The notes under the pieces are model-generated. The model had not been told where the DNA came from, did not search any database, and saw only the letters and a list, made by a program, of their open reading frames with translations. A stretch of 64,000 bases of DNA from Candidatus Abyssobacteria bacterium SURF_5. GTDB lineage: Bacteria; Abyssobacteria; SURF-5. Location: assembly GCA_003598085.1 (NCBI GenBank), contig QZKU01000042.1:50194-114193 (forward strand), written 5' to 3'. Every line of letters begins with the position of its first letter. Position 1 is the first letter of the stretch. Of this stretch, positions 12,422-43,540 are shown one piece after another. The position numbers and the translations under genes are program-made.

Positions 12422-12428
12422 TGGTGAA

Positions 12429-12457: not shown

Positions 12458-12531
12458 TCTTTGACAACTCTCCTTTCCTCTTGACGACAGCCGGTCGCGG
12501 CAGCATCATTTTGCAGATAACTTGAAGGAAA

Positions 12532-13215: not shown

Positions 13216-13230
13216 GACGGGGTAGTTGGT

Positions 13231-13439: not shown

Positions 13440-13490
13440 GAGAAAAGCAGCGCGAGATTTGGCCAGATATATAAGAGCTTGGATACAGGA

Positions 13491-14690
13491 TCACTTCTCG
13501 CAGAGGCAGTCCTGATCGAGAATGGCTGGTTCGATCGGCATCGCCGAAAGCAGCTCATTCCCGTTCTGCGTGATCAGAAGCGGTCTCTCCAATCTGAATC
13601 CGGCGACACCCGGCCGGTTCGCGACGATTGCAATCATCTGGATGTAATTGGGTTTCAGTTCGAACTCCGGCTCCGTGTTGCCCTCCTGCGGGTATTCGAC
13701 GACGCACGGGTACCATTCGTGTCCGAAGTGGCCGATGCCGTGGCCGTAGCCGGGCAGCACGATGTCGTCCCAGTTGTTCTTCGCCACGAACGAAGTGACC
13801 TTTTGTGCGACCTCGCCGAGCGTGATGCCGGGCTGCATGGCGTCGATCAGCGTGTGGCACGTCTCGACGTAAGCGGCGGCTATTTCCTTCTGTTTTGTGG
13901 TGGGCCTGCCGACGAAGACATTGTGTGAGACGTCGCCGAGCATCAGCCCGTACATGGCATGAATATCGAGAAGGACAGCGTCGCCGCATTGAATGATCTT
14001 GTCGGTCGCAGGAGTGCACCCTCCCATCGCGTAGGCGGTGCGGTAGCCGGAGGCGATCTCCATTCCGCCGGTGAACGTCCAGGCGAATTCGCTGCCTGCA
14101 TCGCGCGCCGCTTTCTCGGCGATGCCGGCGACCTGTTTTTCGGTCATGCCGGCGCGCAGTTCACGCAGCACGGCCTCATGGGCGGTGTCGCAGATGGCGC
14201 TTGCCTGGCGCATCAGCTTGACTTCTTCGTCTTCCTTAATGAGCGTGAGCTGATCGAAGACGTCGGCCGCATTCACCAGTTTTGCATTGGGCAGCCGGTA
14301 GCGGAGTTCCTCGTATTCGGCAAGGGTGATGTAGCCTTCGGGAAGATACGAACTCGAGCCGCTCTCGATGCCGATTGTGCCGCGCTCGAGGCCAAGGTCG
14401 GATATCTGCGTGACGATTGATTCGACGAAACCGGCCCCCTGTGACGGTCCATATGGGATAACTACATTAAGCCATGAATCGTCTTTGACGCGCTCCGCAT
14501 CGAGCATCAGCGTGATCAGGCGCGGCTCGCTGTCAGCGGGAATAATGGCGACGCTGCGCCAGGGAACGAACGCGCCGGAGACATGCGTGATGGTTTTCAG
14601 CCGCGTCCCCACGAGGCAGTCGATTTTCTTTTGTTTCAGCGCCTCGCGAATTCGTTCGAGGCGTTCGGCGTATTTGATATAGGTGAACAT
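13491..14690 (-). CDS. M24-family metallopeptidase (Xaa-Pro aminopeptidase/creatinase-like)
   Basis: 399 residues from ATG 14690, with GGAG 8-11 bp upstream. The N-terminal creatinase-type domain (about 1-150) is followed by a pita-bread catalytic domain with metal ligands visible in LLDIHAMYG and LGDVSHNVF (two Asp), GHGIGHFGHEW (His) and downstream Glu residues. Family members cleave Xaa-Pro bonds or act as creatinase-type or dimethylsulfoniopropionate lyases, so substrate should not be assumed. It is divergently arranged with the VOC/aconitase-X operon; a functional link is possible but unproven. The reading frame extends 93 bp further upstream without a ribosome binding site. Confidence 0.85.
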   Translation of the reverse strand: MFTYIKYAERLERIREALKQKKIDCLVGTRLKTITHVSGAFVPWRSVAIIPADSEPRLITLMLDAERVKDDSWLNVVIPYGPSQGAGFVESIVTQISDLGLERGTIGIESGSSSYLPEGYITLAEYEELRYRLPNAKLVNAADVFDQLTLIKEDEEVKLMRQASAICDTAHEAVLRELRAGMTEKQVAGIAEKAARDAGSEFAWTFTGGMEIASGYRTAYAMGGCTPATDKIIQCGDAVLLDIHAMYGLMLGDVSHNVFVGRPTTKQKEIAAAYVETCHTLIDAMQPGITLGEVAQKVTSFVAKNNWDDIVLPGYGHGIGHFGHEWYPCVVEYPQEGNTEPEFELKPNYIQMIAIVANRPGVAGFRLERPLLITQNGNELLSAMPIEPAILDQDCLCEK

Positions 14691-28563: not shown

Positions 28564-29577
28564 TCAATCCTGGCGCTGCGGGAAATGGATTTCATTTGGC
28601 TGCGGCGGCGGAGGATTCTTTGCGGCCCAATCGCCTAATTCATGCCGAATATGGCGGAGGAAATCCCGCCACGTTTCCTTGTCTTTCAGAAAATCGCCGA
28701 GCCGGACGCGGCCGCGGTTCTCTCCGAATTGTTCGTACCATTTCAGGGCGGCGCCGATCAGAGGGGCGACGCGTTCATCCGGCAGAAACCGTGCGATAAT
28801 CTGGCCGTTGACCGGGTGTCGCCCGTGTTTGCCGCCGCAGCGAACGATCCAGCCGACTCGTTTGGCATGCCATGCGTCGAACGGGCATGTGCGGATGCAA
28901 TCACCGCAGTAGAGGCATCCTTCGGGTATGTAGCGGGGATGGCCGGATTGTTCATCGCACACGAGGGCTTGTTCGCGACATGCCTCAATGCAGACACCGC
29001 ACGCCTGGCAGGCGCTCTCTTCCCACCTCGGCTCGACGGCTCCCTGGAAGCCGAGTTCCATCTCATTCGTGCGCGCGCAGTCGATCGGACAGCCGGAGAA
29101 GGATATCTTGAATTTGTGGGCGAGGCTTCCTTTACCGAAGAAGCGATCGGAAATCTCACGGGCCATCGCCTGGGTATCGGTGAGTCCATTCGGATTGTAT
29201 TCACAGCCGGAGCAGGCGGTCGGCACGCGCACGCGCGCGCCGCATGAAGCGATGTGCTGGCCGGCCTTCGCCAGCTCATCGCGCACGTTGCCGAGATCGC
29301 GGTAGTTGACGTAGGGGATTTCGAGTGATTGCCGGAATGAGAGGTGCACGTAGTCGCCGCCGTAGCGGCGGGCCACCTCGAACGCTTTTTCCAATCGGTC
29401 AAGCGGTACTCGTCCGCCCGGGCACTGCAGGCGTACGGTGAACAGGTCTTTCTGGCGCTGCTTGATGATTCCGCCGCTCTTGAGCGTATTGAAATCCAGA
29501 CTGCCTTTCTTGCCTTCGACCTCGATTTCGACCGGCACGCGCGCGGTTTGATCTTCGATGTGTTTGTCTGTACTCAT
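28564..29577 (-). CDS. Siroheme sulfite-reductase-like protein with 2[4Fe-4S] ferredoxin domain (AsrC/Dsr-LP type)
   Basis: 337 residues from ATG 29577 (GGAAAC leader); ATG 29604, with GAGGAAC upstream, is a credible alternative. An N-terminal ferredoxin-like half domain (LFTVRLQCPGG) leads to the siroheme/4Fe-4S region with Cys 112, 122, 125, 163 and 167 (ACSGCEYNPNG, SGCPIDCARTNEMELG). A 2[4Fe-4S] insert follows (C190-C200 and C221-C231). This is the small single-chain anaerobic sulfite reductase type, which reduces sulfite to sulfide in the cytoplasm; some relatives act on nitrite. It is the last gene of the Mo-enzyme cluster but separated from tusA by an inverted repeat. Confidence 0.87.
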   Translation of the reverse strand: MSTDKHIEDQTARVPVEIEVEGKKGSLDFNTLKSGGIIKQRQKDLFTVRLQCPGGRVPLDRLEKAFEVARRYGGDYVHLSFRQSLEIPYVNYRDLGNVRDELAKAGQHIASCGARVRVPTACSGCEYNPNGLTDTQAMAREISDRFFGKGSLAHKFKISFSGCPIDCARTNEMELGFQGAVEPRWEESACQACGVCIEACREQALVCDEQSGHPRYIPEGCLYCGDCIRTCPFDAWHAKRVGWIVRCGGKHGRHPVNGQIIARFLPDERVAPLIGAALKWYEQFGENRGRVRLGDFLKDKETWRDFLRHIRHELGDWAAKNPPPPQPNEIHFPQRQD

Positions 29578-29656
29578 CTTGTTTCCTTTTTCAAAATAAG
29601 ACATGAAGTTCCTCAATTGCTTGGTTAGCTTTGATAAACATTTTGCATAAAGGGCA

Positions 29657-29739
29657 AAATATGGGGACAGAGACTATATTTTTATTCTTTATATACTTCT
29701 ATTCTTAACGATAAAAATATGGTCTCTGTCCCCATATTT
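29657..29739. repeat. Large inverted repeat of REP/TnpA-REP type
   Basis: Arms of 29 bp at 29657-29685 and 29711-29739 match with a single mismatch and are separated by a 25-bp AT-rich loop. The arm starts AAATATGGGGACAGAGAC. Such sequences are dispersed in bacterial genomes and tied to REP-associated transposases; here they may also end or stabilise the transcript. A third, degraded copy is at 29769-29793. Confidence 0.75.
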
Positions 29740-29768
29740 CTAGCGTTTATATATTTGTGTGCGTATTG

Positions 29769-29793
29769 ATAAAAACATGGTCTCTGTTTCCAT
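29769..29793 (+). repeat. Degraded third copy of the REP-type arm
   Basis: ATAAAAACATGGTCTCTGTT continues with TCCAT and aligns with the right arm at 29711-29735 with a few substitutions. It abuts the tusA stop codon. Confidence 0.6.
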
Positions 29794-30023
29794 CATTCCT
29801 GTTTCCGGACGGTGACGCGGAAATGGGTCTGTTCGCGGACGACGCGCTCGATCCGGTGGCCCTCCTCTTTCAGGCTGCGGGGAACGTCGCGCATAGAGGT
29901 TCCGGGGTTGACAAGGAGTTCAATCAACTGTCCGGCCTCGAGTTCCTCGATTGCCAGTTTGGCCTTGATGAAGGTCATCGGGCATTGCGTATCTGTCAGG
30001 TCCAAGATCGACATTTTGCTCAT
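29793..30023 (-). CDS. TusA-family sulfur-carrier protein
   Basis: 76 residues. The signature DLTDTQCPMTFIKAKLAIEE carries the persulfide-accepting C14 in the CPM motif; GTSMRDVPRSLKEEGHRI is the typical second half. TusA-like proteins carry persulfide sulfur between rhodaneses, desulfurases, Dsr proteins or heterodisulfide-reductase-like complexes. It lies 16 bp after the TorD-like gene and upstream of a sulfite-reductase-like gene, which is the strongest local hint of sulfur metabolism. GAGGTG precedes ATG 30023. Confidence 0.88.
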   Translation of the reverse strand: MSKMSILDLTDTQCPMTFIKAKLAIEELEAGQLIELLVNPGTSMRDVPRSLKEEGHRIERVVREQTHFRVTVRKQE

Positions 30024-30039
30024 TTGATGCAGTTACACC

Positions 30040-30657
30040 TCAGTACACGCGGTCCTTCTCGCAGCGGAATTCGATAAAGGCGAAGAGTTTATGGGCGAGT
30101 TGCGCAGCCTCGCGGTAATAGGGATGCGTCGCGGCCCGAGCGATATCGGTGAGGAAATTCGGCAGCCAGCCGAGCAGGTGATCCTGGAGGAAGGCGTCTT
30201 CCGCGTCCCGGCAAACCTCGATGGCTTCGTCGTCTTGGTGGAGGAACGCAAATGCCTGCTTTAACTTGAGATATCCCATGAAAGCGAGTTCGACAGCCAC
30301 GTGATCGGGCGCCTCCGGCAGTTCCTTCGAGTAATTGAAACCGAAGGCTTTGTAGAAAGCGGCGACATCGGCGAGAATGATACCCTTGTCGGCCACACCG
30401 GTTTCGCCGTTGATGCGGCACTGTGATTCATATGGAGAAACACAGCCGCCGCTGCCGATGAGGTGATGATACGCGGATTGGAGGGAAGGATCGGACGTAT
30501 ACGCGACGACCTCCGCGGCCTCGACGCGCAGCTGAGGCGGCAGTTCCGGAACGAGAGAAGCCGCCGCAAGCATTGTCTCTTTTGTGGGCCAGCGAAACAA
30601 GTGCGAGCAGAAATTCCACGAGGTTCCATCGCGAAGCAGTCTTGCCATCATTTTCAT
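30040..30657 (-). CDS. TorD/NarJ-type molybdoenzyme assembly chaperone
   Basis: 205 residues, all-helical. Contains the family hallmark AFMGYLKLKQAFAFLHQDDEA and the acidic-to-hydrophobic helix pattern HLLGWLPNFLTDI. Such chaperones bind the Tat signal and apo-form of a DMSO-reductase-family catalytic subunit before cofactor insertion. The ATG at 30657 overlaps the gamma-subunit stop by 4 bp; the open frame extends further but only inside the gamma gene. It would serve the Mo enzyme alpha chain encoded two genes upstream. Confidence 0.85.
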   Translation of the reverse strand: MKMMARLLRDGTSWNFCSHLFRWPTKETMLAAASLVPELPPQLRVEAAEVVAYTSDPSLQSAYHHLIGSGGCVSPYESQCRINGETGVADKGIILADVAAFYKAFGFNYSKELPEAPDHVAVELAFMGYLKLKQAFAFLHQDDEAIEVCRDAEDAFLQDHLLGWLPNFLTDIARAATHPYYREAAQLAHKLFAFIEFRCEKDRVY

Positions 30658-31538
30658 GCGCCTACCCCCAATCTCAGCGGCACCCATGCGCTGCGCATCT
30701 TGCGAGAGCCTGCATGTCCCTGACTTCCGTCCCATACAGCGAAGGCGATGAAGGCCTTGTCCCCCTTTTTGAATCCTCCCTGGCCGCTCCATTCAGGGAC
30801 GGCGAGCGGACGAGAGAGAACGACATGCCATCGCCCCTTCTCCCACAGGCCTGCTCCTTGCGAGGCTTGAGCCGGCAGATAGGCGAGAGTCCCAAAGCTT
30901 TCGGCGGTCAAGTCGTCGACGCTCGACGTGCGTTTCCCGGCGAGCGGATTTTGAGCGGCAAGCCCGGCAGTGAACAGTCTGTTCAATTCCTCTTTCTGCT
31001 CATCGGGCGCTGCATCGGAAGGATAATGGTCCACCGTCGCATTCGGGAAAATCGATTTCAGGCTCCATTCTCCGTCTTGCAGCGCCCGCTGATAGGACGC
31101 CTTCCATAGGTGGATATGGACAGGCCTGCCCATTGCGCCCATTGTCGAGTCCGGCGCTTCCGCCCCCGCCGCGACGGGTAGTTGGACGGCGACCGCATCG
31201 GAGAATCTTTGGGCTTCATCAACTTCGTCATTGGTTGCATCTTCCCAATCGATTCGGAACGCCACTTGGTCGTTATTACACAGAGCTTTAACCGAGATGC
31301 GGGGAAGGCCATTCATGAGTTTCGGTTCCGTCAGGTCCTGCGGCAGCAAATCGACGATTGCCTCTGGCGCCTGTTGCCACAGCGGGCTGTTGGGAGAGAG
31401 GTCCTGCAACTGCCCGTCTACGAAGAAGGCATTAACCCCCGCGACCGGCGGCTGTTTTCCTTTTGCGCCTTGCGGGCACCCGAAAAAAGAAAGAGGCACG
31501 AAGAACAAGAGCAGGGCGATGATCAGCTTTTGATTCAT
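30654..31538 (-). CDS. Gamma subunit of a class II DMSO-reductase-family enzyme (EbdC-like, heme b), lipoprotein
   Basis: 294 residues. Lipoprotein signal with lipobox SFFGC (C21), unlike the plain signal peptides of ethylbenzene or selenate dehydrogenase gamma subunits that I recall. The mature part is the ethylbenzene-dehydrogenase-related heme-binding fold (FRIDWEDATNDE, VHIHLWKASYQRAL, GRWHVVLSRPL, IAFAVWDGSQGHAGSRK). The family passes electrons from the beta subunit through one heme b, bound by Met and Lys, to a periplasmic carrier. Lipid anchoring would tether the complex to a membrane. It follows beta by 33 bp. Confidence 0.85.
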   Translation of the reverse strand: MNQKLIIALLLFFVPLSFFGCPQGAKGKQPPVAGVNAFFVDGQLQDLSPNSPLWQQAPEAIVDLLPQDLTEPKLMNGLPRISVKALCNNDQVAFRIDWEDATNDEVDEAQRFSDAVAVQLPVAAGAEAPDSTMGAMGRPVHIHLWKASYQRALQDGEWSLKSIFPNATVDHYPSDAAPDEQKEELNRLFTAGLAAQNPLAGKRTSSVDDLTAESFGTLAYLPAQASQGAGLWEKGRWHVVLSRPLAVPEWSGQGGFKKGDKAFIAFAVWDGSQGHAGSRKMRSAWVPLRLGVGA

Positions 31539-31571
31539 TTATATATTCCTCCAGTGTCTTCGCGAAGATAC

Positions 31572-32705
31572 TCAAGTGACGTTCATTCGAGGAACGCCGC
31601 GCTGCGTATCGAAAGCCGGGCGCACCGCGACCGGCTCGCGAACGGGGACAGCGACCAAAGTATCTCCATTATCGTTCAGCGCGCTTACGATATTGCCCTT
31701 TGTTTTAAAGGCCGCGACGGTTTTCGGCGTACACCCGAACAGATTGATGAGCGCCGCCAGTTTCGGTTCGTTCTTATGGGCATTGCGATAGGTTTGAACC
31801 GCCTGCTCCGAGAGCGGCCCGAACAATTGGTTCAGGAACGGGTTCGGCACGTGGATCGGGGGAATGTAATAGACATTCGGCTCGAGCCCCAGTTGCGGGA
31901 ACAAGGGGAGCGCCACTTTTTTCACATGAACCAGATAGTCGATCGGGTTATTCTCATTCGCCTTTTCGGGCACGGAAATCCATCCCCGCAGCCTGATCTT
32001 TCCGATGCATTGAGTGAAGCACCTTGGCTGTTCGTCCTGTTCGCCGAGCGGGAAACAAGCGATACATTTTTCAGAAACGCCGGTGCGCGAGTTAAAGAAA
32101 GTCTTCTTATAAGGGCATGCGCGCACGCATTCGCGGTAACCGCGACAGCGTTTCTGGTCGATCAGGACGATCCCATCCTCGGGTCTCTTGTAGATGGAGC
32201 CGCGCGGGCAGGCCGCCAAACAAGCCGGATACGTGCAGTGGTTGCAGATGCGCGGGAGATAAAACATCCAGACGGGATGCGGCATTTCGACGGACATCCC
32301 GCCGTCGACCGTTCCGAAAATCTCATCCTCGCCGATATTCGGATAGGAGTAATCGCCGCTTTCCGGCCGGTAGCCGAGGAGGCGCTCGCCTGCGGGGGCG
32401 GCCTCAAAGACGGTGCGACCCTCATAGCGTTCGCCGACCCATTCCTGCGGGCCGAGCATCTCGAGGATTTTCGAGTCGTACGCCAGCGGATACGAGCCGT
32501 AGGGCTTGCTTTCGACGTTGTTCCAGAGCATATACTCCTGCCCGCGGCCGGAGGTCCACGTGGTTTTGCAGGCGAGCGTGCATGTCTGGCAGGCGATGCA
32601 CTTGTTCAGATCGAAAACGGCGGCGAATTGTTTAGCGGGCCTGGTCTCGCCATACCAGTAGCTCATGATTCGTCCGATTTGCCAGTTGAATACGCGTGCC
32701 ATCAT
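31572..32705 (-). CDS. Iron-sulfur beta subunit of a class II DMSO-reductase-family enzyme (NarH-like)
   Basis: 377 residues. Four cluster motifs are present: [38 protein letters not shown] and [16 protein letters not shown] followed by CIGKIR. In the third motif the position that is Trp in NarH is Tyr (CRGYREC), compatible with the [3Fe-4S] cluster of this family. It relays electrons between alpha and the heme b of gamma. The ATG overlaps the alpha stop (ATGA). No own signal peptide: it would be co-exported with alpha through Tat. Confidence 0.9.
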
Positions 32706-35700
32706 TGACTCCTTTTCACGATATACGCGCCGGAGAGGTATCTTTTGAAGGATTCGCTTTCATACGTCGGCCGGATGCCGAGGGCCGCGGGCTGCCACAA
32801 AGCGGAGCCGTTGATGCCGCCGGGTTCGGCCTTCTCGATTTTCACAAACGATTCGCGCGGGGCGCCCGTGGGGCAATGGACATCGGGCAAGAAACCCTTT
32901 CCGATGTTTTGGCCGGCGACGTCCTTCCGCACGAGCGAGTCGGTCATGTGCGTCGGCTTGAGCCAACCGCGCGTGGCGCTTTGGTGGCTGCCGGTGCGGA
33001 ACATTGCCTGATAGTTTGTTTCGGGATTCTTCGCCAATCCGTCCTCGCGTGTCTCCTGTCCCTTGACGGAGCCGGGCGTCGCGGCATACATGTTGAACCA
33101 CATCCGCGTAACGCCGAGCGGAGTGCCGGGATAATAGCGCGCGCGGCAGAGCAGGCGCGACACTTTGTAATCGGGGTCATCCGGTTTCCATCCGCGATAG
33201 GGGCGGTCGGCCGGATCGGCATCGATCCAGACGTAATCGCCGTCCTCGATTCCAAGTTTTCGGGCGTCCTGCGGGTTGATATCGACGTAGCCTTCGGAGA
33301 CGAACGGCATTCGTTTGTCGCGGCGATAGATGTCGCCGAAGGGTCCGAACAGAATGGCGACCATATCGGTATCGATGGGCGTGGTGTGAGCGCCGTGGCG
33401 GTACTTGGGCGTATGAAAAATGAAGCGGTAGCCCTGGCTCATGAGCGGATGCTGAGTTTGTGACAGTTCGCTCCAGGGTTTGACGACGTTGCGCACCTGG
33501 CGGACTTCTCCGGATTGATCGCCCGGATCGAGGCCGTAGTCTTGCGGCGTGAGCGGCCGGATAAGCGGATGAGCTGCGGCCAGAATCGCATTCGGCTCAT
33601 AAAAGGTGGAATCTATGGGCTCGCGATGCACCGGCAGGTTTTCACCGTGCTCGATGAACTCGGGTTCGTCTCGATAAAATTCAAGCCTTCCCGTTTTCGT
33701 GTACCATGGCACGCTCTCCTCGGTCTGCTCGAAGCCGACGCATTTCGGCATTGTGCGCGACATCATGAGCGCAGGCACCCCTTTTTTCGCTTTTTCATGC
33801 AAATCGGCAAAAGAGTAGCCGGCGGTATTGCTGCTGTGGTCGAGGATGCGCTGGAGATAGACTCCGCTTTTCTGTTCGTCCGCGAATTTCCAATACAGCG
33901 AGAAGCGCGGGTCATCGATCAGCTCGCCGATCCGTTTACCGACCATTGCGATGATCTCGATGTCGCCGCGACTGTCATGAATGCGGGCTATCGGCGTCTC
34001 GGGGTAAAGGGTAAGGAATGGGTTGGTGACGGACGCGCACATATCGGGGTTTTTCGTTTCGGCCCACGAGTCGGCGGCGAAAACGATATCGGCATGTTCG
34101 CAGGAGGTGGACCACCACCACTCGTTCACGGCTATCATTTCGAATTTCGGCAGCACGTTATGCACGACATTGTAGTGCCATTTCACATTTCCGAGGATCG
34201 AGTTGGCGTTTGCGAACCACAGCGTTTTGGTGGGCGCGGGCATGTGCGTTTTGCCGGTGAACAGTTTGCCGCCGACCTTCAGCGGATGGTCCTCGTGGTT
34301 GTAATAATGAGCCGATTCCGCCCGCCAATACACCTTTGGTCTGGCCGGCTTTGCGGGATCGAGTTCGATATCGAACGGGTTTTCATTGACGTACTGCGCG
34401 AGTCCATTGAACAGAGCGACCCGGTAATTGCCGGCATATGATCCCACGTTGCCGGCGATGCGGCCGACGTTGCCGGTCAAAGCGGCCAGCAAGAAGACGG
34501 CGCGATCCTTGAGGTCGTTGTTGAAGAACTGGTTGGGTCCCATTCCGATCGCCATAAGGGTCTTGCCGGGATGGGCCGCTATCTCACGTGCGAGCGAGAC
34601 GATCGCATCTTTCGGCGCCCAGGTAATCTGCTCACCGTTTTCGGGCGAATAGTTATCGGCGAGGTAGTTTTTGATTACGGTGAAGATGGTGGCCGCTCGC
34701 ACTGTCTCGTCGTTCGTCAGGGTTACCTCGAATTCCCCTTCGAGGGCGGGAGAAAGTCCTGAGTCATCGAAATGATTGCCGACCTGATCGCGGGTGATGG
34801 CGGCGGGCGCTTTTTTCTTAGTGTCCCAGACGACGAAATCGCCCCACTCGTCGCGCATCTCGGCCGGAATAAGCTGCTCCACCTGCTTATGGGGAGGGAT
34901 TTTCTTGTCATCTGGTCGGACGACACGCGCCATGTTCTTGAGATCGGCGTTCTGATAATCTTTGAAGATGTCGGAGGCATGCAGGAGCTTCATGTTGTCG
35001 TAGCGAACGAGCAGAGGCAGGTCGGTGAACCGTTTGACGTACTTTTCATCGAACAGCTTTTCCTGGACGATAACATTGGATAAGGCGAGCGCGAGAGCGG
35101 GCGTTGTTCCCGGGCGAACCATGATTCCGACGTCGGCCTTGTTCACGGTTGCGCTATATTCGCAGGCGATGACGACGACGCGCGTGCCTTTCACGCGCGC
35201 CTCGGTGAGCCAGTGGGCGTCGGGCATTTTGGTGGTAATCCAATTCATCCCCCACACGATTACGAGGTCCGCCTGTTCGGTTGAGTCCAGATCGAACTCG
35301 ACGGTCTGCTGTCCGGTGACCATTGGATGTCCGGGCGGGAGATCGGTATGCCAGGAGTAGTTGTCCCATCCCCGCCCGCCGAGCGCATCGTCTTCCGAGA
35401 CGCCGCGGATATGGCGATCGAGCAGCGCGAGCGAGTTTGCGAAGCGGTACATGCCAAACACGCGCGTCATGCCAAGGAGCGGCATCCCGCCACGGAACTT
35501 GAGGCATTGCGTGCCGGCGCCCCGCGTGACCTCGATCATCTCCTCGTCATATCCCTGTGCGCGCAGGCGCTTGGCGCCAGCTTCGCCGGAATAGGTCTGT
35601 GCGACATTGATCAACGTTCTTGCGGCCAGATCGGCCGCTTTCTCCCACGGTATTTTCTCCCAGGTATCGCGCGCGCGGTTGAAATACTCGACGGGCGGCT

Positions 35701-36178
35701 TTCCGGTGACCGGGTCACGCGGGAATCCTTTTTCGACCCATTCGCGGAAGCCGGTGCGCACCATGGGCGCCTTCACGCGGCGGTCTCCGTAGAAGCGTCG
35801 TGTGAGGGCGAGCCCTTTCTGGCAGCAGCGGGGGTCCCATCGGGCGGAGGCCTTGTTTCCGTAAAGGTCTTCGGCCTTTCCATAGCCGTAGGTGGCGCCG
35901 ATGCGCACGATGACATCGTTTTTGACGTGCGCGGTGAGCAGGCAATTATGCGTGTCGTTGGGCGCGCACAGAAACGTGAAGGTGCTGTCGGGTTTGAAGA
36001 GATCCCGATAGACTTTTTCCCAATCGCGATTCGGGTAAGCCTCGAGAGGGCTTTGCGCCGCCTCGACGAAGAGCCAGGGGAACTGTGCCAGGTATCCGGC
36101 AAAACCGAGCGCCGACGCTTTCTTAATGAACTCGCGGCGCCCAAATCCGTTGCCGGCTTCCGATCCTTTGGTTGTCAT
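32702..36178 (-). CDS. Molybdopterin catalytic (alpha) subunit, class II DMSO-reductase family, Tat-exported
   Basis: 1158 residues. Tat signal RREFIKK (R14, R15), so periplasmic. By eye against NarG, the FS0 ligand positions are C71, D75, C79 and C118 or C119, so the second ligand is Asp rather than Cys. The NarG-like motif [19 protein letters not shown] contains D279, the expected Asp ligand to Mo, and marks class II (nitrate reductase, nitrite oxidoreductase, ethylbenzene dehydrogenase, selenate, chlorate and perchlorate reductases). [20 protein letters not shown] is also NarG-like. GGAGGTGTC precedes ATG 36178. Substrate not assignable; Nxr/pNar-like or another oxyanion enzyme are the leading options. 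Confidence 0.9.
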
Positions 36179-36202
36179 GACACCTCCTGAGAAGGCAAAT
36201 GA

Positions 36203-38527
36203 TTATTGCTTTGACTGTAGCGCACGAACAAAGGCGACAGTATCGTTAACGTCCTCTGCCGTCAATCTCGGGTAATTCAGATTGTCGGTTGCAAAGGCGG
36301 GCATGCCGAACATCGGGCGGCCGCGAATGATGGATGCCTGCAGGTATCCGTCGGTGGCGGCAGCCAGGAACGCGGAATTTGCAAGCTCCGGCGCCCATCC
36401 GTTGATGCCTCCCTGTCCATGGCACCCGGTACAGTTCTGATTGAAGAGGGTTTGGCCGTTTTGAGCGTCCCCCTGAACGAGCCGGCCCGGCGCTTGCGCC
36501 GGCAACTTCGCCAGTCGCCGGCGGATATATGTGATTGCATTGGACAGTTGTTGATCGGTCACCTCCGGCGCAGAAAGTTGCCCGGGCGCATCTTTGGGCT
36601 GAATACAGCGGCCCAACCGAACGGCGGCCCCCAGATAGTCGTCGGATGCAGCTTCAAGAAGGGAAGGATTGACGATGTTTACCGCGTATTTCCCCTCTCC
36701 TCTTTCGGCGTGACATGGAGCGCACGATTCTGCGAAAACCGCCTGGCCATCCATAATTGAATCTGCCGGCGGAAGAACGGGCAGTTTCGCTTTCTTTCCC
36801 GACCGGAGGCTTTCGATGTAATCGATGAGGGAGGCCAATTCCTGAGCATTCAGCTCCGGCCGGCTTCCCATCGCGGTGTCTTCGCGCCCCTGTGTCAACA
36901 TGTGGTAGAGGAACTTTGTGTCTGCCGTTTGAAGGAAGACCTCATTGGAAAGATCGGGTCCGATGGCGGTGTTGGAGTCGTGGCAGACTGCGCAACTCTC
37001 GCGATAGATGGCTTTGCCGAGTTCGAGTTCATGCTGTGCGGAGGAGACATCCTGCCACGAGGGCGCCGCGGGTTGCTGCGAGCGCAGATATTCGACCAGC
37101 GATTGAATTTCGGCGGCACGAAGGCCGCCCTCTTTTGTTCCCCACGGCGGCATCTTGCGGCCGGGACGCCCATTGACCAGATTTTCTCGAATGAACCGAT
37201 CTGAAGCAACGGCCAAGAACTCCTGGCTCGTCACTGCCGGGAATTTTTGGGTGAAAATACCGAAGCCGGCTCCCTGTCCGCTGACACCGTGACAGGAATT
37301 GCAGAATGCGCTGTAGAGTGATTTTCCGTCGGCAGAGAATTCGCGCTTGCCGAGCCGCTCGGACTCGAACCGGCCGGCAGGCCATCTGTTCATGGGGACA
37401 TCGGCTCCACGCAGGGAGAGCATGTAGAGCGTAACTGCCTCGAGTTCCTCCGGCCTCAGCTCGGCGTGCGGCATTAGGCTGCCGGCGACAATGAGCGCGG
37501 GATCGAGCAGATGCGCCTTATGCCAGTTCGCCAGGTTATGTTCGCCTTCGACATACGAGAAATCGAGACGGTTTGGATTCTTCTTTCCGGTTGCCGACAA
37601 ATCAGGGCCTTCGTCGCCGCCTGTCCCATTGATCCGGTGACAGCCGAGGCATCCTTTCCGATAAACAAGTGCTTTGGCGTCGACGAAGGCGGGCGCTTGC
37701 ATGAGAGTATTGAGAAACGCATTTATCGCTGTGACTTCTTCCGGATCGATCGGGCCGTAGCTCTCCAGCCACGCCGGCTCGATCGACTGTTGCTGCAACT
37801 CGAGGTGGTTCTGATGCCAATCGGCAAGAAATCCTCTGATGCCGACCGTGGAGAGATCGGGCCCTGTGCCGCGCCCGCGCGCATCAACTTTATGGCACGC
37901 AAGACAATCGTATTGTTCGAACAGGCGCTTTCCACGGTCGGCCAACTCTTGCGGCGGCACTTTCACGTGAGTGTGGCAACTGCCGCAGCCGGCCTGAAAG
38001 TAGCCGGCGGGAATGAGCGGGTCTTCCCAATGGGGGACGGTTCCATGCGCGTCCTCGGTTGTTGTTGCAAGACCCTGTCCGCCATGACACAACGTGCAGC
38101 CGAACTGCTCGGGCGGATGTATATCGAATACCCACTGCGGATGAGCGCCGTAGGGCTGCTTCTGGTCCGCCAGATTGGGATTGTCAAAACCCGCGTGACA
38201 TGTTGTGCAGCGATCGGAGACACCATATGCCGCCGACGTTATCTGCTTGATTTCCTGGGGGAACGGCGGCGGGCTTTTCCCCTCGGCGACGGCGACCGCG
38301 GCGAGCACGCTCTTGAAATTTCTCTGATGCTTCAGCCAGGGTTTCAGATAATGCTCGGTTATTATGGCGGCCAGCAGGCAGAGCAAAACGACTCCTGAAG
38401 TGATCAGCAAGGCCCAGCGTGCTCGCCTGCCTGCGGGAGTAACTGGATCGAACGTCGGGACGGTCAACCCTGAGAAGACCTCCGGGCGATGATTCTGTCC
38501 TGAGTTTCCGTTCAATGAATCGGCCAT
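36203..38527 (-). CDS. Membrane-anchored nonaheme cytochrome c
   Basis: 774 residues from ATG 38527, overlapping the cytochrome b stop by 16 bp. One membrane helix (about 38-58, WALLITSGVVLLC region) anchors a large periplasmic part with nine CXXCH heme motifs at 107, 144, 181, 208, 293, 409, 512, 602 and 699. The first part (3 motifs closely spaced) resembles the cytochrome subunits attached to cytochrome b complexes; the later ones look like four to six monoheme cytochrome c domains in series, each with GPDLS- or MPPW-type distal-ligand segments. It should link the Rieske/b quinol module with the Mo enzyme. Most Rieske/b complexes carry one to six hemes, so nine is high. Confidence 0.88.
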   Translation of the reverse strand: MADSLNGNSGQNHRPEVFSGLTVPTFDPVTPAGRRARWALLITSGVVLLCLLAAIITEHYLKPWLKHQRNFKSVLAAVAVAEGKSPPPFPQEIKQITSAAYGVSDRCTTCHAGFDNPNLADQKQPYGAHPQWVFDIHPPEQFGCTLCHGGQGLATTTEDAHGTVPHWEDPLIPAGYFQAGCGSCHTHVKVPPQELADRGKRLFEQYDCLACHKVDARGRGTGPDLSTVGIRGFLADWHQNHLELQQQSIEPAWLESYGPIDPEEVTAINAFLNTLMQAPAFVDAKALVYRKGCLGCHRINGTGGDEGPDLSATGKKNPNRLDFSYVEGEHNLANWHKAHLLDPALIVAGSLMPHAELRPEELEAVTLYMLSLRGADVPMNRWPAGRFESERLGKREFSADGKSLYSAFCNSCHGVSGQGAGFGIFTQKFPAVTSQEFLAVASDRFIRENLVNGRPGRKMPPWGTKEGGLRAAEIQSLVEYLRSQQPAAPSWQDVSSAQHELELGKAIYRESCAVCHDSNTAIGPDLSNEVFLQTADTKFLYHMLTQGREDTAMGSRPELNAQELASLIDYIESLRSGKKAKLPVLPPADSIMDGQAVFAESCAPCHAERGEGKYAVNIVNPSLLEAASDDYLGAAVRLGRCIQPKDAPGQLSAPEVTDQQLSNAITYIRRRLAKLPAQAPGRLVQGDAQNGQTLFNQNCTGCHGQGGINGWAPELANSAFLAAATDGYLQASIIRGRPMFGMPAFATDNLNYPRLTAEDVNDTVAFVRALQSKQ

Positions 38528-40068
38528 TGGCTGTGGCTCCAATAAAAGTTCCAGTTTGGGCCGCGATGGACAGTCGCAACGTATGTCAGGATTATGAAAG
38601 CGACAAAGAAACAGGTGAACAACGCGATTGCGCCGGCGCGGGTGGAATTGTGCCGCCTGATGACATACAGCGACCAGCCCGCGAAAACCGCAACCAGGAG
38701 CGTCCCCGGGTTGAGCAGGATGATGACCAGTTGGGGGATGCCGGGGAACCAATTGCGCAGCCACCCAAACCGTATGGTGAAGGCGAGCAGCGCCACAACG
38801 ACAATTGTCCCGAACAGCGCGCTCTGCAAGGCGAGCTTTCTTCTGCCGTCGCCGGCGCACCAGAGTCCACCCGGCTCTCTCTCACGATCGAGAAACGGGA
38901 TAAGCCCTAATCCGATGAGAACGAGCGTTGGAATGCCGATGCCGCCCATGAAGGCGGAATAGGAGACCAGTTCCTGCAGTCCGAGGAAATACCACGGCGC
39001 CTTGGCCGGGTTTTCGGGGACGGCCGGATTCGCCAGTTCTTTTAAGGGAGCGTCGGCAATGAGCGCGAGCACAAGGCAGATCGCGCAGGTGGCCATGAAA
39101 ACGGCCACTTCGGCATAGAACGCGTTTGGCCAGGAGGTGATCGTGTTTCCCTGGCCCAGATCGACATGCGGCGTTTTCCCCCGGACGAGCGCCATCAAGC
39201 CGTATGTCTTCTGCGGGCTCGGGTGGAAGGCGACATGCTGGCCCGTCAGCAGGCGCACCGGCGCCTCAGGCTCATCGAGGGGCCGGGCGAGGCCGCCGTC
39301 CTTGCGCACGCGCCAGAAGTGGACGCCGAGGAATATCGCCAGAACCAGCGGCAGGAGGATTACGTGCAAAAGATAGAAGCGGGTGAGCGCCTCCTGTCCG
39401 ACGGTATCCGCCCCAAGCAGGACGCGTTTTTGGATTCCGCCCGGGTCGAAGAATCTGGTAATACCGAGGGCGTCGGTCAGCTCACGCGGAGATTGAGCGA
39501 TGTTGGAGCCGATCGTTATCGCCCAGTAGGCCAACTGGTCCCAGGGCAGCAGATATCCGGTGAAGCTGAGGCCGAGCGTCAGGACGAGCAGGGCGAGTCC
39601 AACAAGCCAATTAAATTCACGCGGGCTCTTGTACGAAGATGTATAGAAGACGCGGGCCATGTGGAGAAACACGAGCAGTACCATGAGGTGGGCGCTCCAG
39701 CGATGGATATTGCGGATGAACTGGCCGGTCGGAACAATGAAGTGGATATCTTTGATCGATTCGTATGCCTGCAAAGTGGACGGTTTGTAATAGACCATCA
39801 GCAGGACGCCGGTGATGGTTAAAATGATGAAGGCGGCGAGGGCGCCGACTCCCAGGCCGCAGGTGCTCCAGAACTTGAGTGTTCGCTCCTGCACACGCGT
39901 CGAATGGATATGCAGGAAAAAGTTGGAGAATACGGCTTCCGAGCGGGTGCGGTCGGTATCGGGTCGGCCATGCCGGATTGCGGCGTCGCGAAGGTTTGCG
40001 GGCGTCTGCTGAAGATTCTCAGTGAACGTTTCGAGCGCGGTTCCAAATTGTTTCTTGTCCTGAGCCAT
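38512..40068 (-). CDS. Cytochrome b of a Rieske/cytochrome b complex (b6 plus subunit IV fused)
   Basis: 518 residues with about eight to ten membrane helices. Heme b ligands are H122 and H136 (HRWSAHLMVLLVFLHMARV) and H235 and H250 (LLHVILLPLVLAIFLGVH), the second pair 15 apart as in b6-type proteins. The subunit-IV part follows in the same chain. The Qo-site PEWY motif reads APWY at 357-360, so the usual Glu is missing. Quinol oxidation or quinone reduction coupled to proton translocation is expected. AGGAGGCGAT leader; 8 bp after the Rieske gene. Confidence 0.9.
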   Translation of the reverse strand: MAQDKKQFGTALETFTENLQQTPANLRDAAIRHGRPDTDRTRSEAVFSNFFLHIHSTRVQERTLKFWSTCGLGVGALAAFIILTITGVLLMVYYKPSTLQAYESIKDIHFIVPTGQFIRNIHRWSAHLMVLLVFLHMARVFYTSSYKSPREFNWLVGLALLVLTLGLSFTGYLLPWDQLAYWAITIGSNIAQSPRELTDALGITRFFDPGGIQKRVLLGADTVGQEALTRFYLLHVILLPLVLAIFLGVHFWRVRKDGGLARPLDEPEAPVRLLTGQHVAFHPSPQKTYGLMALVRGKTPHVDLGQGNTITSWPNAFYAEVAVFMATCAICLVLALIADAPLKELANPAVPENPAKAPWYFLGLQELVSYSAFMGGIGIPTLVLIGLGLIPFLDREREPGGLWCAGDGRRKLALQSALFGTIVVVALLAFTIRFGWLRNWFPGIPQLVIILLNPGTLLVAVFAGWSLYVIRRHNSTRAGAIALFTCFFVAFIILTYVATVHRGPNWNFYWSHSQWPIH

Positions 40069-40076
40069 ATCGCCTC

Positions 40077-40544
40077 CTAGACGTGAAATTTGGTTCCGGC
40101 GGATACTTGCTTCTGCACGTCGACAACCAGTTGTCCGTCGGGCGCCATCGCGACTTCGAGCCAGGGCAGTGGAGAGGGCGCAGGTCCTTTTTTCACCTCG
40201 CCCTGAAGCCCAAATTTTGAGCCGTGGCAGGGGCAGTCGAAACCTGTGGGGCTCTGCGAGACTATGCAGCCGAGGTGAGTGCAGACGCCGGAGATGGCGA
40301 AGAAACCTTCCCCATCACGGAAGAGGAATGCGCGGGCTGCAGGCATCCAGCGGACAGTCTCCGGCGCAAAATCATCCGGCCGGCCTATTTTGATTTTGCC
40401 CGCCTCACCGGTGATAACGGCAGGAAACGGGAGCCGGGCGATCCCGCCGGCGGTAACGACGAGTGCGGCTCCGCAGGTCCACGTGGCGGCTTTCCCCAAA
40501 AAATCACGCCGCGGGACTGGTTGTGGTTTTCGCAGTTCGCTCAT
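40077..40544 (-). CDS. Rieske [2Fe-2S] protein
   Basis: 155 residues from ATG 40544. Twin-arginine RRDFLGK (R12, R13) with one hydrophobic helix (about 22-40) for membrane anchoring. Cluster motifs CTHLGC (C88, H90) and CPCHGS (C104, H107) are complete, including the disulfide cysteines C93 and C106. The start overlaps the end of the flavoprotein gene by 4 bp; the longer open frame upstream lies inside that gene. Partner of the cytochrome b encoded 8 bp downstream. Confidence 0.92.
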   Translation of the reverse strand: MSELRKPQPVPRRDFLGKAATWTCGAALVVTAGGIARLPFPAVITGEAGKIKIGRPDDFAPETVRWMPAARAFLFRDGEGFFAISGVCTHLGCIVSQSPTGFDCPCHGSKFGLQGEVKKGPAPSPLPWLEVAMAPDGQLVVDVQKQVSAGTKFHV

Positions 40545-42409
40545 TCGAGTTTCTCCTGGAAACAAAAGCGTTCCATGGTGATAGCGCCGGTTGGACACCT
40601 CATGGCGCAACAGGCGCACCGTATGCATTTTTCTTCGTCTTTAATGATTGCGGAGAGCGGCTTGCCGGGGTCAAGGAGCGAGATGCTGCGGGCGAGCGCG
40701 CCGATCTCGTCATTCGACTCGAGGTTGTCGAGAGACACGAGCCGCAGGCATAGGGTCGGGCAGACATCGGCGCAGCCGCCGCAGAGAACGCATTTTTCCG
40801 AGTCGAAAATCGTATTGATTCCGCAGTCGAGACAGCGTGAGGCTTCCACCCGCGCTCGCGCTTCATTGTATCCTTTCTCGACGCTCAGGGATTTGTCCTT
40901 GAGGCGCAGCGAGGGATCCGTGACCGGAATCTTCACTCGCGCCAATCGCTCGTAGCCCTTCTCGCGCCGATAGGCCGGCGGTTCGAAATGGAGCTCGAGC
41001 GCGCGTGGGTCGAGAGAATTTCCTGTCAGGAATTCGAAGACGGAGCGCGCGGCTTTTTTTCCGCTCGCAATCGCGTCGATCATCAGCCGGGGGCCGTGAG
41101 CGACGTCACCGGCAAAAAAGACGGATGCGGCCGTGCTTTGCATGGTTTGCGGGTTGATCGAAGGGATTCCGCGGTCGCTGATCTCGATGCCGGTTTGAGC
41201 GGGATCGATAAACGAGAGGTCCGATGCCTGGCCGACGGCAAGGAGGACGGTATCGCACTCGATCGTTGTTAATTCGGCGGGATCGAATTCAGGCGCGAAC
41301 CGTTTATTTTCGTCATACACGCGCAGCACCTTCTGGAAGACTGCGCCGGTGACGCGGCCCTGATCGTCCCGGATGATTTCTTTCGGGCCGAGGCTGGTTC
41401 TGAGGGTTATTCCTTCCTCGGCGCCTTCCACGATTTCGACATCGTCGGCAGGCATCTCGATCAGCGATTCGAGACAACACAGAGTCACCTCGCGTACTCC
41501 GGGCACGCGAACGGCGGTGCGGGCCGAATCAAAAAATTCCTGCCGCAGGACGGTTCGGCTGACGTCGTACGCCACGTTTCCGCCGCCGATTACGACCACC
41601 CGCTTCCCGATATCGACCGGGTTTCTCAGCGCTACATCCCTGAGGAAATCGACGCCGCCAAGGACGCCTGGGCCGTCGATTCCCGGCAGGCGCAGCCCGC
41701 GCGATCTCTTTGCGCCCACGGCCACAACGACGGCATCGTGTTCCCTTGTAAGCGACTCAAACGCGATGTCTTTGCCGATCTGGATTCCGCAACGAATTTC
41801 GGCACCCAAAGACTCAATCAGGGCAACCTCGGCTCTTATTACGTCGCGCGGCAGGCGGTATTCCGGCACGCCCAGGTAGAGCATGCCGGCGGCGACCGGC
41901 TCCATCTCATAGATGATCGGTTGCAGGCCGAGTAAAGCCAGGTCATGCGCGCATGCCAGCCCTGCCGGTCCCGAACCGATGATTGCCACTTTTTTTTGTT
42001 TAAGCGAGAGCGGAGATTGGCGCCTCAGCAACCAGAGGAGCTCATCACGTCCCTGACACAATTGCGGGAGTAAGTTTCTTTGTAGCCATTCCTTGAATGA
42101 TTCTATCCCTTTAGTGCCGGCCTCGGGGCCGAAGCTGTCAGCTACAAACCGTTTGAGCGCACGGATTGCAATCGGTTGATCGATTTTCCCGCGCCGGCAG
42201 TTAACTTCACACGGCGCTCCGCAGATGCGCCCGCAAATGGAAGCAAGGGGATTCGGTCCGCGGGCAATAAGATAAGCGAGTTCGTCCTTGCCTTCGCTGA
42301 TTGCGCGCACGTACCCGCGCGCATCGGTATGGACGGGGCAGGCGTCCTGGCAGTTGATTTGTCTGCGCCAGTACCTATAATCGGGGACTTCCACCTTGTA
42401 CTGAAGCAT
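40541..42409 (-). CDS. GltD-like FAD/NAD(P) oxidoreductase with ferredoxin domains, first gene of the Rieske/b/Mo operon
   Basis: 622 residues from ATG 42409 (MLQYKVEVPDYRYWR). N-terminal Fe-S domain (NCQDACPVHTDARGY, CGRICGAPCEVNC), FAD fold (VAIIGSGPAGLACAHDLALL), NAD(P) fold (VVVIGGGNVAYDVSRTV), then a C-terminal 2[4Fe-4S] module (CVLCGGCADVCP, CIRCACCAMRCP). No membrane helix, so cytoplasmic, probably docking on the Rieske/b complex to exchange electrons between NAD(P)H or ferredoxin and the quinone pool. An NAD(P)-type subunit next to Rieske/b genes has been reported in anammox bacteria, as far as I recall. The frame extends 81 bp upstream without a start that fits. Confidence 0.85.
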   Translation of the reverse strand: MLQYKVEVPDYRYWRRQINCQDACPVHTDARGYVRAISEGKDELAYLIARGPNPLASICGRICGAPCEVNCRRGKIDQPIAIRALKRFVADSFGPEAGTKGIESFKEWLQRNLLPQLCQGRDELLWLLRRQSPLSLKQKKVAIIGSGPAGLACAHDLALLGLQPIIYEMEPVAAGMLYLGVPEYRLPRDVIRAEVALIESLGAEIRCGIQIGKDIAFESLTREHDAVVVAVGAKRSRGLRLPGIDGPGVLGGVDFLRDVALRNPVDIGKRVVVIGGGNVAYDVSRTVLRQEFFDSARTAVRVPGVREVTLCCLESLIEMPADDVEIVEGAEEGITLRTSLGPKEIIRDDQGRVTGAVFQKVLRVYDENKRFAPEFDPAELTTIECDTVLLAVGQASDLSFIDPAQTGIEISDRGIPSINPQTMQSTAASVFFAGDVAHGPRLMIDAIASGKKAARSVFEFLTGNSLDPRALELHFEPPAYRREKGYERLARVKIPVTDPSLRLKDKSLSVEKGYNEARARVEASRCLDCGINTIFDSEKCVLCGGCADVCPTLCLRLVSLDNLESNDEIGALARSISLLDPGKPLSAIIKDEEKCIRCACCAMRCPTGAITMERFCFQEKLE

Positions 42410-42496
42410 AATTAGCTCTTTTGTGAAGAGGCTGTCACGTGTGTGCGGACTATTCGTGTTAAATTTTGCCTCTATTTGCCGATATCGCAAGGCCAG

Positions 42497-42532
42497 TAAT
42501 AAGCTATTTACGTCATTAAAACGCCTAAATAA
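42497..42532 (-). promoter_or_regulatory. Candidate Rrf2 regulator sites upstream of the respiratory operon
   Basis: TAATAAGCTATTTA (42497-42510) resembles the palindrome AAATAAGTTATTT near the regulator's own promoter, with 11 of 13 positions alike, and CCTAAATAA (42524-42532) occurs in both regions. They lie in the 141-bp gap between the regulator stop and the flavoprotein ATG. A matching -35/-10 pair is not clear. Confidence 0.4.
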
Positions 42533-42550
42533 TGCCTTTTAAAAAACCCC

Positions 42551-42967
42551 TTAGATGTTAGCGAACTGATGATCGAACATGTCGAGGGTAATATTCTGGT
42601 ACAATTCGCGCGTACTTTCTTTCAGTGAGTCGAGGCGAGTGCGGATCGAGCATTGCTGGAATAACTGGCAATGGTCGTTCGGTCCGAGTTCGCAGTGTCC
42701 GGTAAGAATCGGACCGTCAATTGCTTCAATTATGCTCAACAGGCTGATTTTAGATGGTTCCCGGGAGAGGACGTATCCTCCCTGGGGGCCGCGCCGGGAA
42801 TAAACGAGGTGAGTTCTCGCCAGGCGCTGGAAGATTCTCGCGAGATATCCGTGTGGGATCCCGAGTTTTTGTGCGATTATTTTTACATCCGTTGGCGAAT
42901 TTTCGGCGGCGTTAGCGAGGAAAACCATTCCATGTATTGCCGTGACAGATGCTTTTGAGAGGTGCAT
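42551..42967 (-). CDS. Rrf2-family Fe-S transcriptional regulator
   Basis: 138 residues from ATG 42967. N-terminal winged helix (KIIAQKLGIPHGYLARIFQRLA, wing RRGPQGGYVLSRE) and three Cys, C92, C100 and C106, in the cluster-binding loop of IscR/NsrR-type proteins (C-x7-C-x5-C). Such proteins sense cluster status, NO or redox state. It is encoded directly upstream of, and on the same strand as, the flavoprotein/Rieske/Mo operon, so it probably controls that operon and itself. A TTG start 12 bp upstream is possible. Confidence 0.85.
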   Translation of the reverse strand: MHLSKASVTAIHGMVFLANAAENSPTDVKIIAQKLGIPHGYLARIFQRLARTHLVYSRRGPQGGYVLSREPSKISLLSIIEAIDGPILTGHCELGPNDHCQLFQQCSIRTRLDSLKESTRELYQNITLDMFDHQFANI

Positions 42968-42977
42968 AGGACTCGCC

Positions 42978-42990
42978 AAATAAGTTATTT
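42978..42990. promoter_or_regulatory. Palindromic operator AAATAAGTTATTT
   Basis: Perfect 13-bp inverted repeat (AAATAA-G-TTATTT) located about +12 to +24 relative to the predicted transcription start of the Rrf2 gene, where binding would block elongation or initiation. A near-copy lies upstream of the respiratory operon. Confidence 0.5.
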
Positions 42991-43008: not shown

Positions 43009-43037
43009 ATTATAACTTCGTCTTTTTGTTTTGTCAA
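43009..43037 (-). promoter_or_regulatory. Consensus promoter of the Rrf2 regulator
   Basis: Minus-strand TTGACA (43037-43032), 17 bp, TATAAT (43014-43009): a perfect match to the sigma-70 consensus. Confidence 0.8.
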
Positions 43038-43510: not shown

Positions 43511-43540
43511 TTGACAATCTTTAGGGGGCGGGAATATAAT
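43511..43540 (+). promoter_or_regulatory. Promoter of the IscU-like gene
   Basis: TTGACA (43511-43516), 18 bp, TATAAT (43535-43540). Predicted leader of about 150 nt, long enough for regulation, but no riboswitch fold was recognised. Confidence 0.65.

What the first reader, a model, noticed from the sequence alone, without database searches (positions are those of the whole stretch)
28564..42967. Respiratory supercluster: Rrf2 regulator, GltD-like flavoprotein, Rieske/cytochrome b, nonaheme cytochrome c, class II Mo enzyme, TusA and sulfite reductase-like protein
Ten genes on one strand, most overlapping by 4-16 bp or separated by under 35 bp, encode every step of one electron-transfer chain from a cytoplasmic NAD(P)/ferredoxin flavoprotein to a periplasmic molybdoenzyme. 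The families are known, and related Rieske/b complexes with an NAD(P)-type subunit exist in anammox bacteria as far as I recall. Their union with a class II Mo enzyme, TusA and AsrC in one locus is not a combination I know. It could run a nitrite-oxidoreductase-like or sulfur-oxyanion reaction in either direction.
Basis: partly seen in the sequence, partly recalled or inferred. Interest (0 to 1): 0.85.

Follow-up and report, generated by a model that had tools for sequence, protein, structure and literature searches.

The report
Nitrate reductase wired to respiratory complex
The gene cluster most likely builds a nitrate-breathing enzyme wired to a membrane electron pump and an NAD(P)-handling protein; dozens of uncultured bacteria and one cultured one share it, which makes a disputed energy-saving mechanism from anammox bacteria easier to test.

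Summary
In detail: 11 same-strand genes (28564-42979, minus) with a 12/12 promoter match upstream. Rrf2, GltD-like flavoprotein, Rieske, cytochrome b, nonaheme cytochrome c, alpha, beta, gamma and chaperone form a module. Its gltD-to-gamma order is conserved in 46 loci, mainly Acidobacteriota and Planctomycetota. TusA and the sulfite-reductase-like gene do not belong: in both other held phylum members they sit elsewhere, beside a PAPS-reductase-like gene and another Rrf2.

Alpha's closest solved relative is Kuenenia NxrA (42%), whose catalytic signature it keeps, but it lies in a separate supported clade. That clade holds Thioploca/Thiomargarita and, with the full module, Thermogutta terrifontis, a cultured nitrate reducer whose only other molybdopterin protein is TtrA-like. 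The window genome has no haem-copper oxidase and no cytochrome bd above cut-off. So nitrate reduction, not nitrite oxidation or sulfur chemistry, is most likely.

The Rieske/b part resembles the NAD(P)-linked Kuenenia complexes but lacks their haem-cN cysteine. A testable reading: menaquinol bifurcation between nitrate and NAD(P)+. The layout resembles haloarchaeal nar; the Thermogutta cytochrome b/c1-Nar neighbourhood was already published. New variant of a known kind; this copy is one of many.

The parts
42551..42979 (-). Rrf2-family regulator; Cys96 and Cys110 conserved in 26 aligned homologues of R/b-containing loci
   Evidence: Pfam PF02082 1e-31; Cys conservation
43009..43037 (-). sigma-70-type promoter match TTGACA-N17-TATAAT, 12 of 12, upstream of rrf2
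   Evidence: sequence (consensus match only)
40541..42409 (-). GltD/NfnB-like FAD/NAD(P) flavoprotein with N-terminal Fer4_20 cysteines and C-terminal Fe-S cysteines; related to Kuenenia Kustd1483/Kuste4570
40077..40544 (-). Rieske [2Fe-2S] protein, CTHLGC...CPCHGS, Phe at the Tyr position, one N-terminal TM helix
38512..40068 (-). cytochrome b: b6-like half fused to a subunit-IV-like half with five predicted TM helices; haem His 122/136/235/250; LHIH motif (His53/His55); no haem-cN Cys
36203..38527 (-). membrane-anchored nonaheme cytochrome c (most relatives have seven haem motifs)
32702..36178 (-). NXR-type class II Mo-bisMGD catalytic subunit with twin-arginine motif; Mo-Asp279, Asn74, FS0 Cys71/Asp75/Cys79/Cys119
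31572..32705 (-). NarH/NxrB-type four-cluster Fe-S beta subunit
30654..31538 (-). EB_dh/NxrC-type haem b gamma subunit; Met133 and Lys280 match the haem ligands of NXR-C
30040..30657 (-). TorD/NarJ-family chaperone
29793..30023 (-). TusA-like protein; adjacent, not part of the conserved module
28564..29577 (-). small siroheme sulfite-reductase-like protein with ferredoxin insert; adjacent, not part of the conserved module

Best explanation
A respiratory nitrate reductase facing the periplasm, with its own quinol-oxidising complex. Alpha-beta-gamma (NXR-type Mo subunit, Fe-S subunit, haem b subunit; exported by Tat with the chaperone's help) reduces nitrate to nitrite. Electrons come from menaquinol through the Rieske protein, the membrane-anchored nonaheme cytochrome c and the gamma haem. 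The fused b6/subunit-IV-type cytochrome b takes the second quinol electron across the membrane. There the GltD-like flavoprotein links it to NAD(P), either by receiving it (bifurcation that drives NAD(P)+ reduction, as proposed for the related Kuenenia complexes) or by feeding NAD(P)H electrons into the quinone site. Rrf2 probably regulates the operon. Shown here: gene content, order, conservation, catalytic and haem-ligand signatures, clade, and lack of haem-copper oxidase. Inferred: substrate direction, physical complex, and the direction of the flavoprotein arm. TusA and the SIR-like protein are neighbours, not parts.
For: Best solved relative of alpha is Kuenenia NxrA 7b04 (946 bits; 41.6% identity). 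FS0 Cys71/Asp75/Cys79/Cys119, Asn74 and Mo-Asp279 are invariant in 87 family members. Gamma Met133 is invariant in 70, Lys280 in 66 of 70 with four gaps, matching the NXR-C haem ligands (PMC8387239). The core order gltD-Rieske-cytb-cytc-alpha-beta-gamma is found in 46 loci. L124 lies on a single 4,810,751-bp contig, the published length of the T. terrifontis R1 chromosome (PMC5673643). That organism grows anaerobically with nitrate, and its only other PF00384 protein is TtrA-like. Thioploca, Thiomargarita and Parabeggiatoa, known nitrate users (own knowledge), share the clade. The window genome (98.5% complete) has no PF00115 match and no cytochrome bd over cut-off, so no oxygen-reducing partner for nitrite oxidation was found. 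Flavoprotein Fe-S cysteines are invariant or nearly so in 50 members, and nearly all are shared with both Kuenenia homologues. Haloferax larsenii has Rieske-cytb-x-NarG-NarH-gamma-TorD; a haloarchaeal Nar of this layout is antimycin-sensitive (PMC4683180, citing earlier work).
Against: No member of this alpha clade has been purified, as far as I found. NXR-type enzymes are bidirectional (PMC8387239), and PMC10732223 proposes nitrite oxidation for Planctomycetota sequences that lie in the same broad NXR/Thermogutta clade. The window genome also encodes a canonical NarGH, so a second nitrate reductase needs a reason. No NrfA over cut-off was found in it. The identity of G175 with T. terrifontis rests on contig length and gene neighbourhood. 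Some family members (L019, L059, L061) lack the Rieske/b module, so it is not obligatory.
Confidence: 0.72

Rival explanations
1. A nitrite oxidoreductase working in the oxidative direction: nitrite electrons enter cytochrome c and are pushed by reverse electron flow through the Rieske/b complex to NAD(P)+.
For: Alpha carries every tested NXR signature; NXR is bidirectional (PMC8387239); the flavoprotein could be the NAD(P)+-reducing exit; PMC10732223 suggests nitrite oxidation for related Planctomycetota sequences.
Against: The window genome has no haem-copper oxidase and no cytochrome bd above cut-off, leaving no evident acceptor above the nitrate/nitrite couple. Alpha lies outside the Kuenenia NXR clade and inside one with nitrate reducers. 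T. terrifontis has the full module and no other nitrate-reductase candidate.
Confidence: 0.12
2. A sulfur-oxyanion system: TusA and the SIR-like protein act with the Mo enzyme (for example thiosulfate, tetrathionate or sulfite conversion).
For: TusA follows the chaperone by 16 bp on the same strand. In Kuenenia a 54% identical SIR and a TusA also sit beside an NAD(P)-linked Rieske/b cluster.
Against: None of the other loci with the module has TusA or SIR nearby. In the two other phylum members the pair lies on another contig next to a PAPS-reductase-like gene and its own Rrf2; in Kuenenia next to a PALP enzyme (probable cysteine synthase), a JAB and a DsrE-like protein. Alpha signatures are of nitrate/nitrite type.
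Confidence: 0.05
3. Nitrate reductase as in the best explanation, but the Rieske/b complex runs an ordinary Q cycle and the flavoprotein is an NAD(P)H (or ferredoxin) entry point, so the unit is an NAD(P)H-to-nitrate respirasome without bifurcation. (Nested in the best explanation; it concerns only the flavoprotein arm.)
For: All four haem b histidines and the APWYF motif at the PEWY position are invariant, fitting a working quinol site; the haem-cN Cys found in Kuenenia complexes is missing, a real difference from the system for which bifurcation was proposed.
Against: Flavoprotein and haem-b-site conservation with the Kuenenia complexes fits the bifurcation proposal at least as well; no direct evidence for either direction.
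Confidence: 0.4

Closest known systems
Thermogutta terrifontis nar locus (THTE_1506-1512, PMC5673643)
   Same: Module in the same order: Rrf2, GltD-like, Rieske, cytochrome b, cytochrome c, alpha (66% identity), beta, gamma, with a TorD gene next (PMC5673643). The paper links complex III genes to nitrate growth.
   Different: Seven haem motifs in the cytochrome c instead of nine; the GltD-like gene is not discussed in the passages I read; labelled there as a cytoplasmic Nar, whereas the window alpha carries a twin-arginine motif.
Kuenenia stuttgartiensis NXR (Kustd1700/1703/1704, PDB 7b04)
   Same: Alpha, beta, gamma architecture; FS0 3Cys/1Asp; Mo-Asp; gamma Met/Lys haem ligands.
   Different: About 42% identity in alpha; separate supported clade; no Rieske/b genes found in the 19-kb Kuenenia nxr region.
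Kuenenia NAD(P)-linked Rieske/cytochrome b complexes Kuste4569-4574 and Kustd1480-1485 (PMC12954380)
   Same: GltD-like subunit with shared Fe-S cysteines, b6-like half, five-helix subunit-IV-like half, LHxH histidine proposed as a new haem b ligand, multihaem cytochrome c.
   Different: Cytochrome b and subunit IV fused in the window family; haem-cN Cys absent; partner is a nitrate-reductase-type Mo enzyme instead of an HAO-like protein (or an unknown one).
Haloarchaeal pNar operon (Haloferax mediterranei narBC-GH-orf7-J, PMC2483277; H. larsenii)
   Same: Rieske, cytochrome b, small gene, alpha, beta, EB_dh gamma, TorD chaperone in the same order; active site outside; Q-cycle coupling proposed.
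   Different: Alpha only about 26% identical, 982 aa, on another branch; no GltD-like gene or multihaem cytochrome c annotated there; no LHxH motif.

Membership tests
NXR/pNar-type class II Mo enzymes (broad clade) | FS0 cluster 3Cys/1Asp and active-site Asn | tested here: met
   Cys71, Asn74, Asp75, Cys79, Cys119 invariant in 87 rows and matching Kuenenia
NXR/pNar-type class II Mo enzymes (broad clade) | Mo-coordinating Asp | tested here: met
   Asp279 invariant; Kuenenia Asp275 region aligned
NXR/pNar-type class II Mo enzymes (broad clade) | Periplasmic export by Tat | tested here: met
   GRREFIK motif at residue 13 of alpha; motif only, export not assayed
NXR/pNar-type class II Mo enzymes (broad clade) | Haem b gamma subunit with Met/Lys ligands | tested here: met
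   Met133 and Lys280
Nitrite oxidoreductase sensu stricto (Nitrospira/anammox NXR) | Alpha inside the NXR clade | tested here: not met
   Outside the 12-row clade that holds Kuenenia NxrA, in a separate clade with supports 100/100; Nitrospira sequences could not be fetched
Nitrite oxidoreductase sensu stricto (Nitrospira/anammox NXR) | Nitrite-oxidising physiology | not testable with these tools
   No oxygen reductase above cut-off in the genome argues against it
Kuenenia-type NAD(P)-linked Rieske/b complex | GltD-like NAD(P) oxidoreductase subunit with conserved Fe-S cysteines in the same cluster | tested here: met
   Cysteines conserved in 50 family members
Kuenenia-type NAD(P)-linked Rieske/b complex | b6-like half plus five-helix subunit-IV-like half | tested here: met
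   Hydropathy peaks at 319, 367, 412, 447, 480; hydropathy only
Kuenenia-type NAD(P)-linked Rieske/b complex | His proposed as new haem b ligand (His43 Kuste4571, His62 Kustd1481) | tested here: met
   His53 in 49 of 49; also present in relatives with no gltD nearby, so not diagnostic
Kuenenia-type NAD(P)-linked Rieske/b complex | Haem cN (Cys as in cytochrome b6) | tested here: not met
   Gly71 in 49 of 49 at the Kuenenia Cys column
Kuenenia-type NAD(P)-linked Rieske/b complex | Rieske potential above +300 mV | not testable with these tools
   Ser present, Phe instead of Tyr in all 54 Rieske sequences; sequence alone does not decide
Haloarchaeal pNar operon | Rieske-cytb-x-alpha-beta-gamma-chaperone order | tested here: met
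Haloarchaeal pNar operon | Orthologous alpha | tested here: not met
   26% identity, different branch
TusA-AsrC respiratory sulfur system | Linkage of TusA/SIR with the Mo enzyme in relatives | tested here: not met

The most novel reading that the evidence does not exclude
The locus encodes a quinol-bifurcating complex in which menaquinol oxidation is split: one electron goes through Rieske, multihaem cytochrome c and the Mo enzyme to nitrate, the other through the b haems, a haem b at the dimer interface and the flavoprotein to NAD(P)+. Nitrate respiration would then directly pay for NAD(P)H, and the family would show the kind of dedicated high-potential partner that is missing for Kuenenia Kustd1480-1485.
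Probability: 0.3. Interest if true: 0.8.

Novelty: new variant of a known kind. Interest (0 to 1): 0.5.

Why it matters
NAD(P)-linked Rieske/b complexes are an open question in anammox bioenergetics and are hard to study there. This family links the same kind of complex to a nitrate-reductase-type enzyme in one operon, across Acidobacteriota, Planctomycetota, Verrucomicrobiota and a small candidate phylum, and includes a cultured thermophile. It also bears on how NXR-type genes in metagenomes should be read: many of them may be nitrate reductases, not signs of nitrite oxidation.

Tried and rejected
Rejected: TusA/SIR as part of the unit (absent from all other module loci, separate cassette in relatives). 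Rejected: haem cN in the window cytochrome b. Cys70 looked like the b6 Cys35 at first, but it is one residue off and is not conserved. Rejected: the LHxH histidine as a mark of the NAD(P) subunit, since R/b clusters with no gltD in the DNA fetched around them also have it. Not run: structure prediction, since single chains would not test the complex or the direction.

Full report
Observation. From the GltD-like gene to TusA they overlap by 4-16 bp or lie under 35 bp apart; the TusA to SIR gap is about 215 bp. A perfect sigma-70-type promoter match stands just upstream of rrf2. The cytochrome c has nine CxxCH motifs and one predicted membrane anchor.

Where it comes from. The window lies in a 5.1-Mb draft genome, 98.5% complete. 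Only two other genomes of its phylum are held, both of the same family, and both have alpha at 81% identity. One of them matches the record titled Candidatus Abyssobacteria SURF_17 and the other one titled Candidatus Poribacteria.

The conserved unit. A scan of public genomes gave 80 loci with alpha at about 60-82% identity. In 46 loci the order gltD, Rieske, cytochrome b, cytochrome c, alpha, beta, gamma is kept on one strand, and 52 have the Rieske, flavoprotein and cytochrome c genes; others are cut by contig ends. Most come from Acidobacteriota and Planctomycetota. Most relatives have seven haem motifs in the cytochrome c; the window and its nearest kin have nine or ten. Alpha relatives at E <= 1e-100 occur in 85 of 392 Planctomycetota genomes, most of them in the 40-45% identity range that includes Kuenenia NxrA. 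At E <= 1e-200 they occur in 47 of 396 Acidobacteriota genomes.

What does not belong. No other module locus has TusA or the SIR-like gene nearby. In the two phylum relatives the tusA-sir pair is on a different contig, behind a PAPS-reductase-like gene and another Rrf2. In Kuenenia the SIR homologue (54%) and TusA sit with a PALP enzyme (probable cysteine synthase), a JAB protein and a DsrE-like protein. This looks like sulfur assimilation. In Kuenenia that cassette also happens to lie next to a Rieske/b cluster, so a functional tie is not excluded, only unsupported.

Alpha, beta, gamma. The best solved relative of alpha is Kuenenia NxrA, 41.6% identical. The FS0 cysteines and aspartate, the active-site asparagine and the molybdenum aspartate are invariant in 87 members, as described for NXR (PMC8387239). 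Gamma keeps the Met and Lys haem ligands. Trees place alpha outside the clade of Kuenenia NXR, in a separate clade with supports of 100/100. That clade contains Thioploca, Thiomargarita and Parabeggiatoa. Long branches make the haloarchaeal placements unsure.

Direction. One Planctomycetota contig with the module is 4,810,751 bp long, exactly the published chromosome of Thermogutta terrifontis R1, whose paper describes nar genes next to cytochrome b/c1 genes and growth with nitrate (PMC5673643). That genome has two PF00384 proteins: this alpha and a TtrA-like one. By elimination this alpha is its likely nitrate reductase. The window genome has no haem-copper oxidase match and no cytochrome bd above cut-off. 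It does have a canonical NarGH as well and no NrfA over cut-off. Earlier authors could not assign the direction for Planctomycetota sequences in the broad NXR/Thermogutta clade and leaned to nitrite oxidation (PMC10732223). For the module-bearing lineages I favour nitrate reduction.

The Rieske/b part. Kuenenia has two clusters with a GltD-like subunit, matching the complexes for which menaquinol bifurcation towards NAD(P)+ was proposed (PMC12954380). The window family shares the flavoprotein Fe-S cysteines, the five-helix C-terminal half, and the histidine proposed to bind a new haem b. It lacks the haem-cN cysteine in all 49 sequences compared. The histidine also occurs in related complexes with no gltD in the DNA fetched around them, so it does not by itself prove NAD(P) coupling. 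Nitrate (about +0.43 V, own knowledge) would be an adequate high-potential acceptor for such bifurcation. Whether bifurcation or NAD(P)H entry takes place is open.

Known layouts. Haloferax larsenii has Rieske, cytochrome b, a small gene, alpha, beta, gamma and chaperone in the same order, as described for H. mediterranei (PMC2483277), with a quite different alpha and no flavoprotein annotated. So the arrangement is a known kind; the flavoprotein, multihaem cytochrome and NXR-type alpha make it a variant. I found no paper in the searched open-access library that describes this exact combination; subscription papers were not searched.

Noticed in passing
window genome G000:C4:30000-47000 (locus L128): A second class II Mo enzyme (EbdA-like, 995 aa) with its own Rieske, cytochrome b and eight-haem cytochrome c genes. 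Its cytochrome b keeps both the LHxH motif and the cN-type Cys; no gltD was found in the fetched DNA. Three more EbdA-like enzymes lie in L127 and L129.
   Followed up: partly
window genome G000:C7 (locus L126): Canonical NarG and NarH above the NCBIfam cut-offs, near a contig end.
   Followed up: partly
locus L161 (Kuenenia), 6000-14000: SIR-like and TusA genes lie directly beside an NAD(P)-linked Rieske/b cluster, as tusA-sir lie beside the module in the window; cause unknown.
   Followed up: partly
window 17280-19157 (+): CoA-binding and succinyl-CoA-ligase-like domains followed by an RNase H-like C-terminal domain in one reading frame.
   Followed up: no
window 743-2380 (-): A second GltD-like flavoprotein, next to a frame that reads like a 2-oxoacid oxidoreductase subunit.
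   Followed up: no
window 38515-38517: The last residue of cytochrome b, His518, is invariant in 49 sequences; no role known to me.
   Followed up: no
G000:C113:2544-3800 and relatives in G005, G006: PF00384 frames of about 1400 aa with one in-frame TGA in all three genomes, possibly selenocysteine formate dehydrogenases.
   Followed up: no
alignment, NXR-side rows: Two of 14 rows on the NXR side have Cys in place of the FS0 Asp.
   Followed up: no
window 43511-43540 (+): A second 12/12 promoter match pointing the other way, towards a NifU-like gene at 43667.
   Followed up: no
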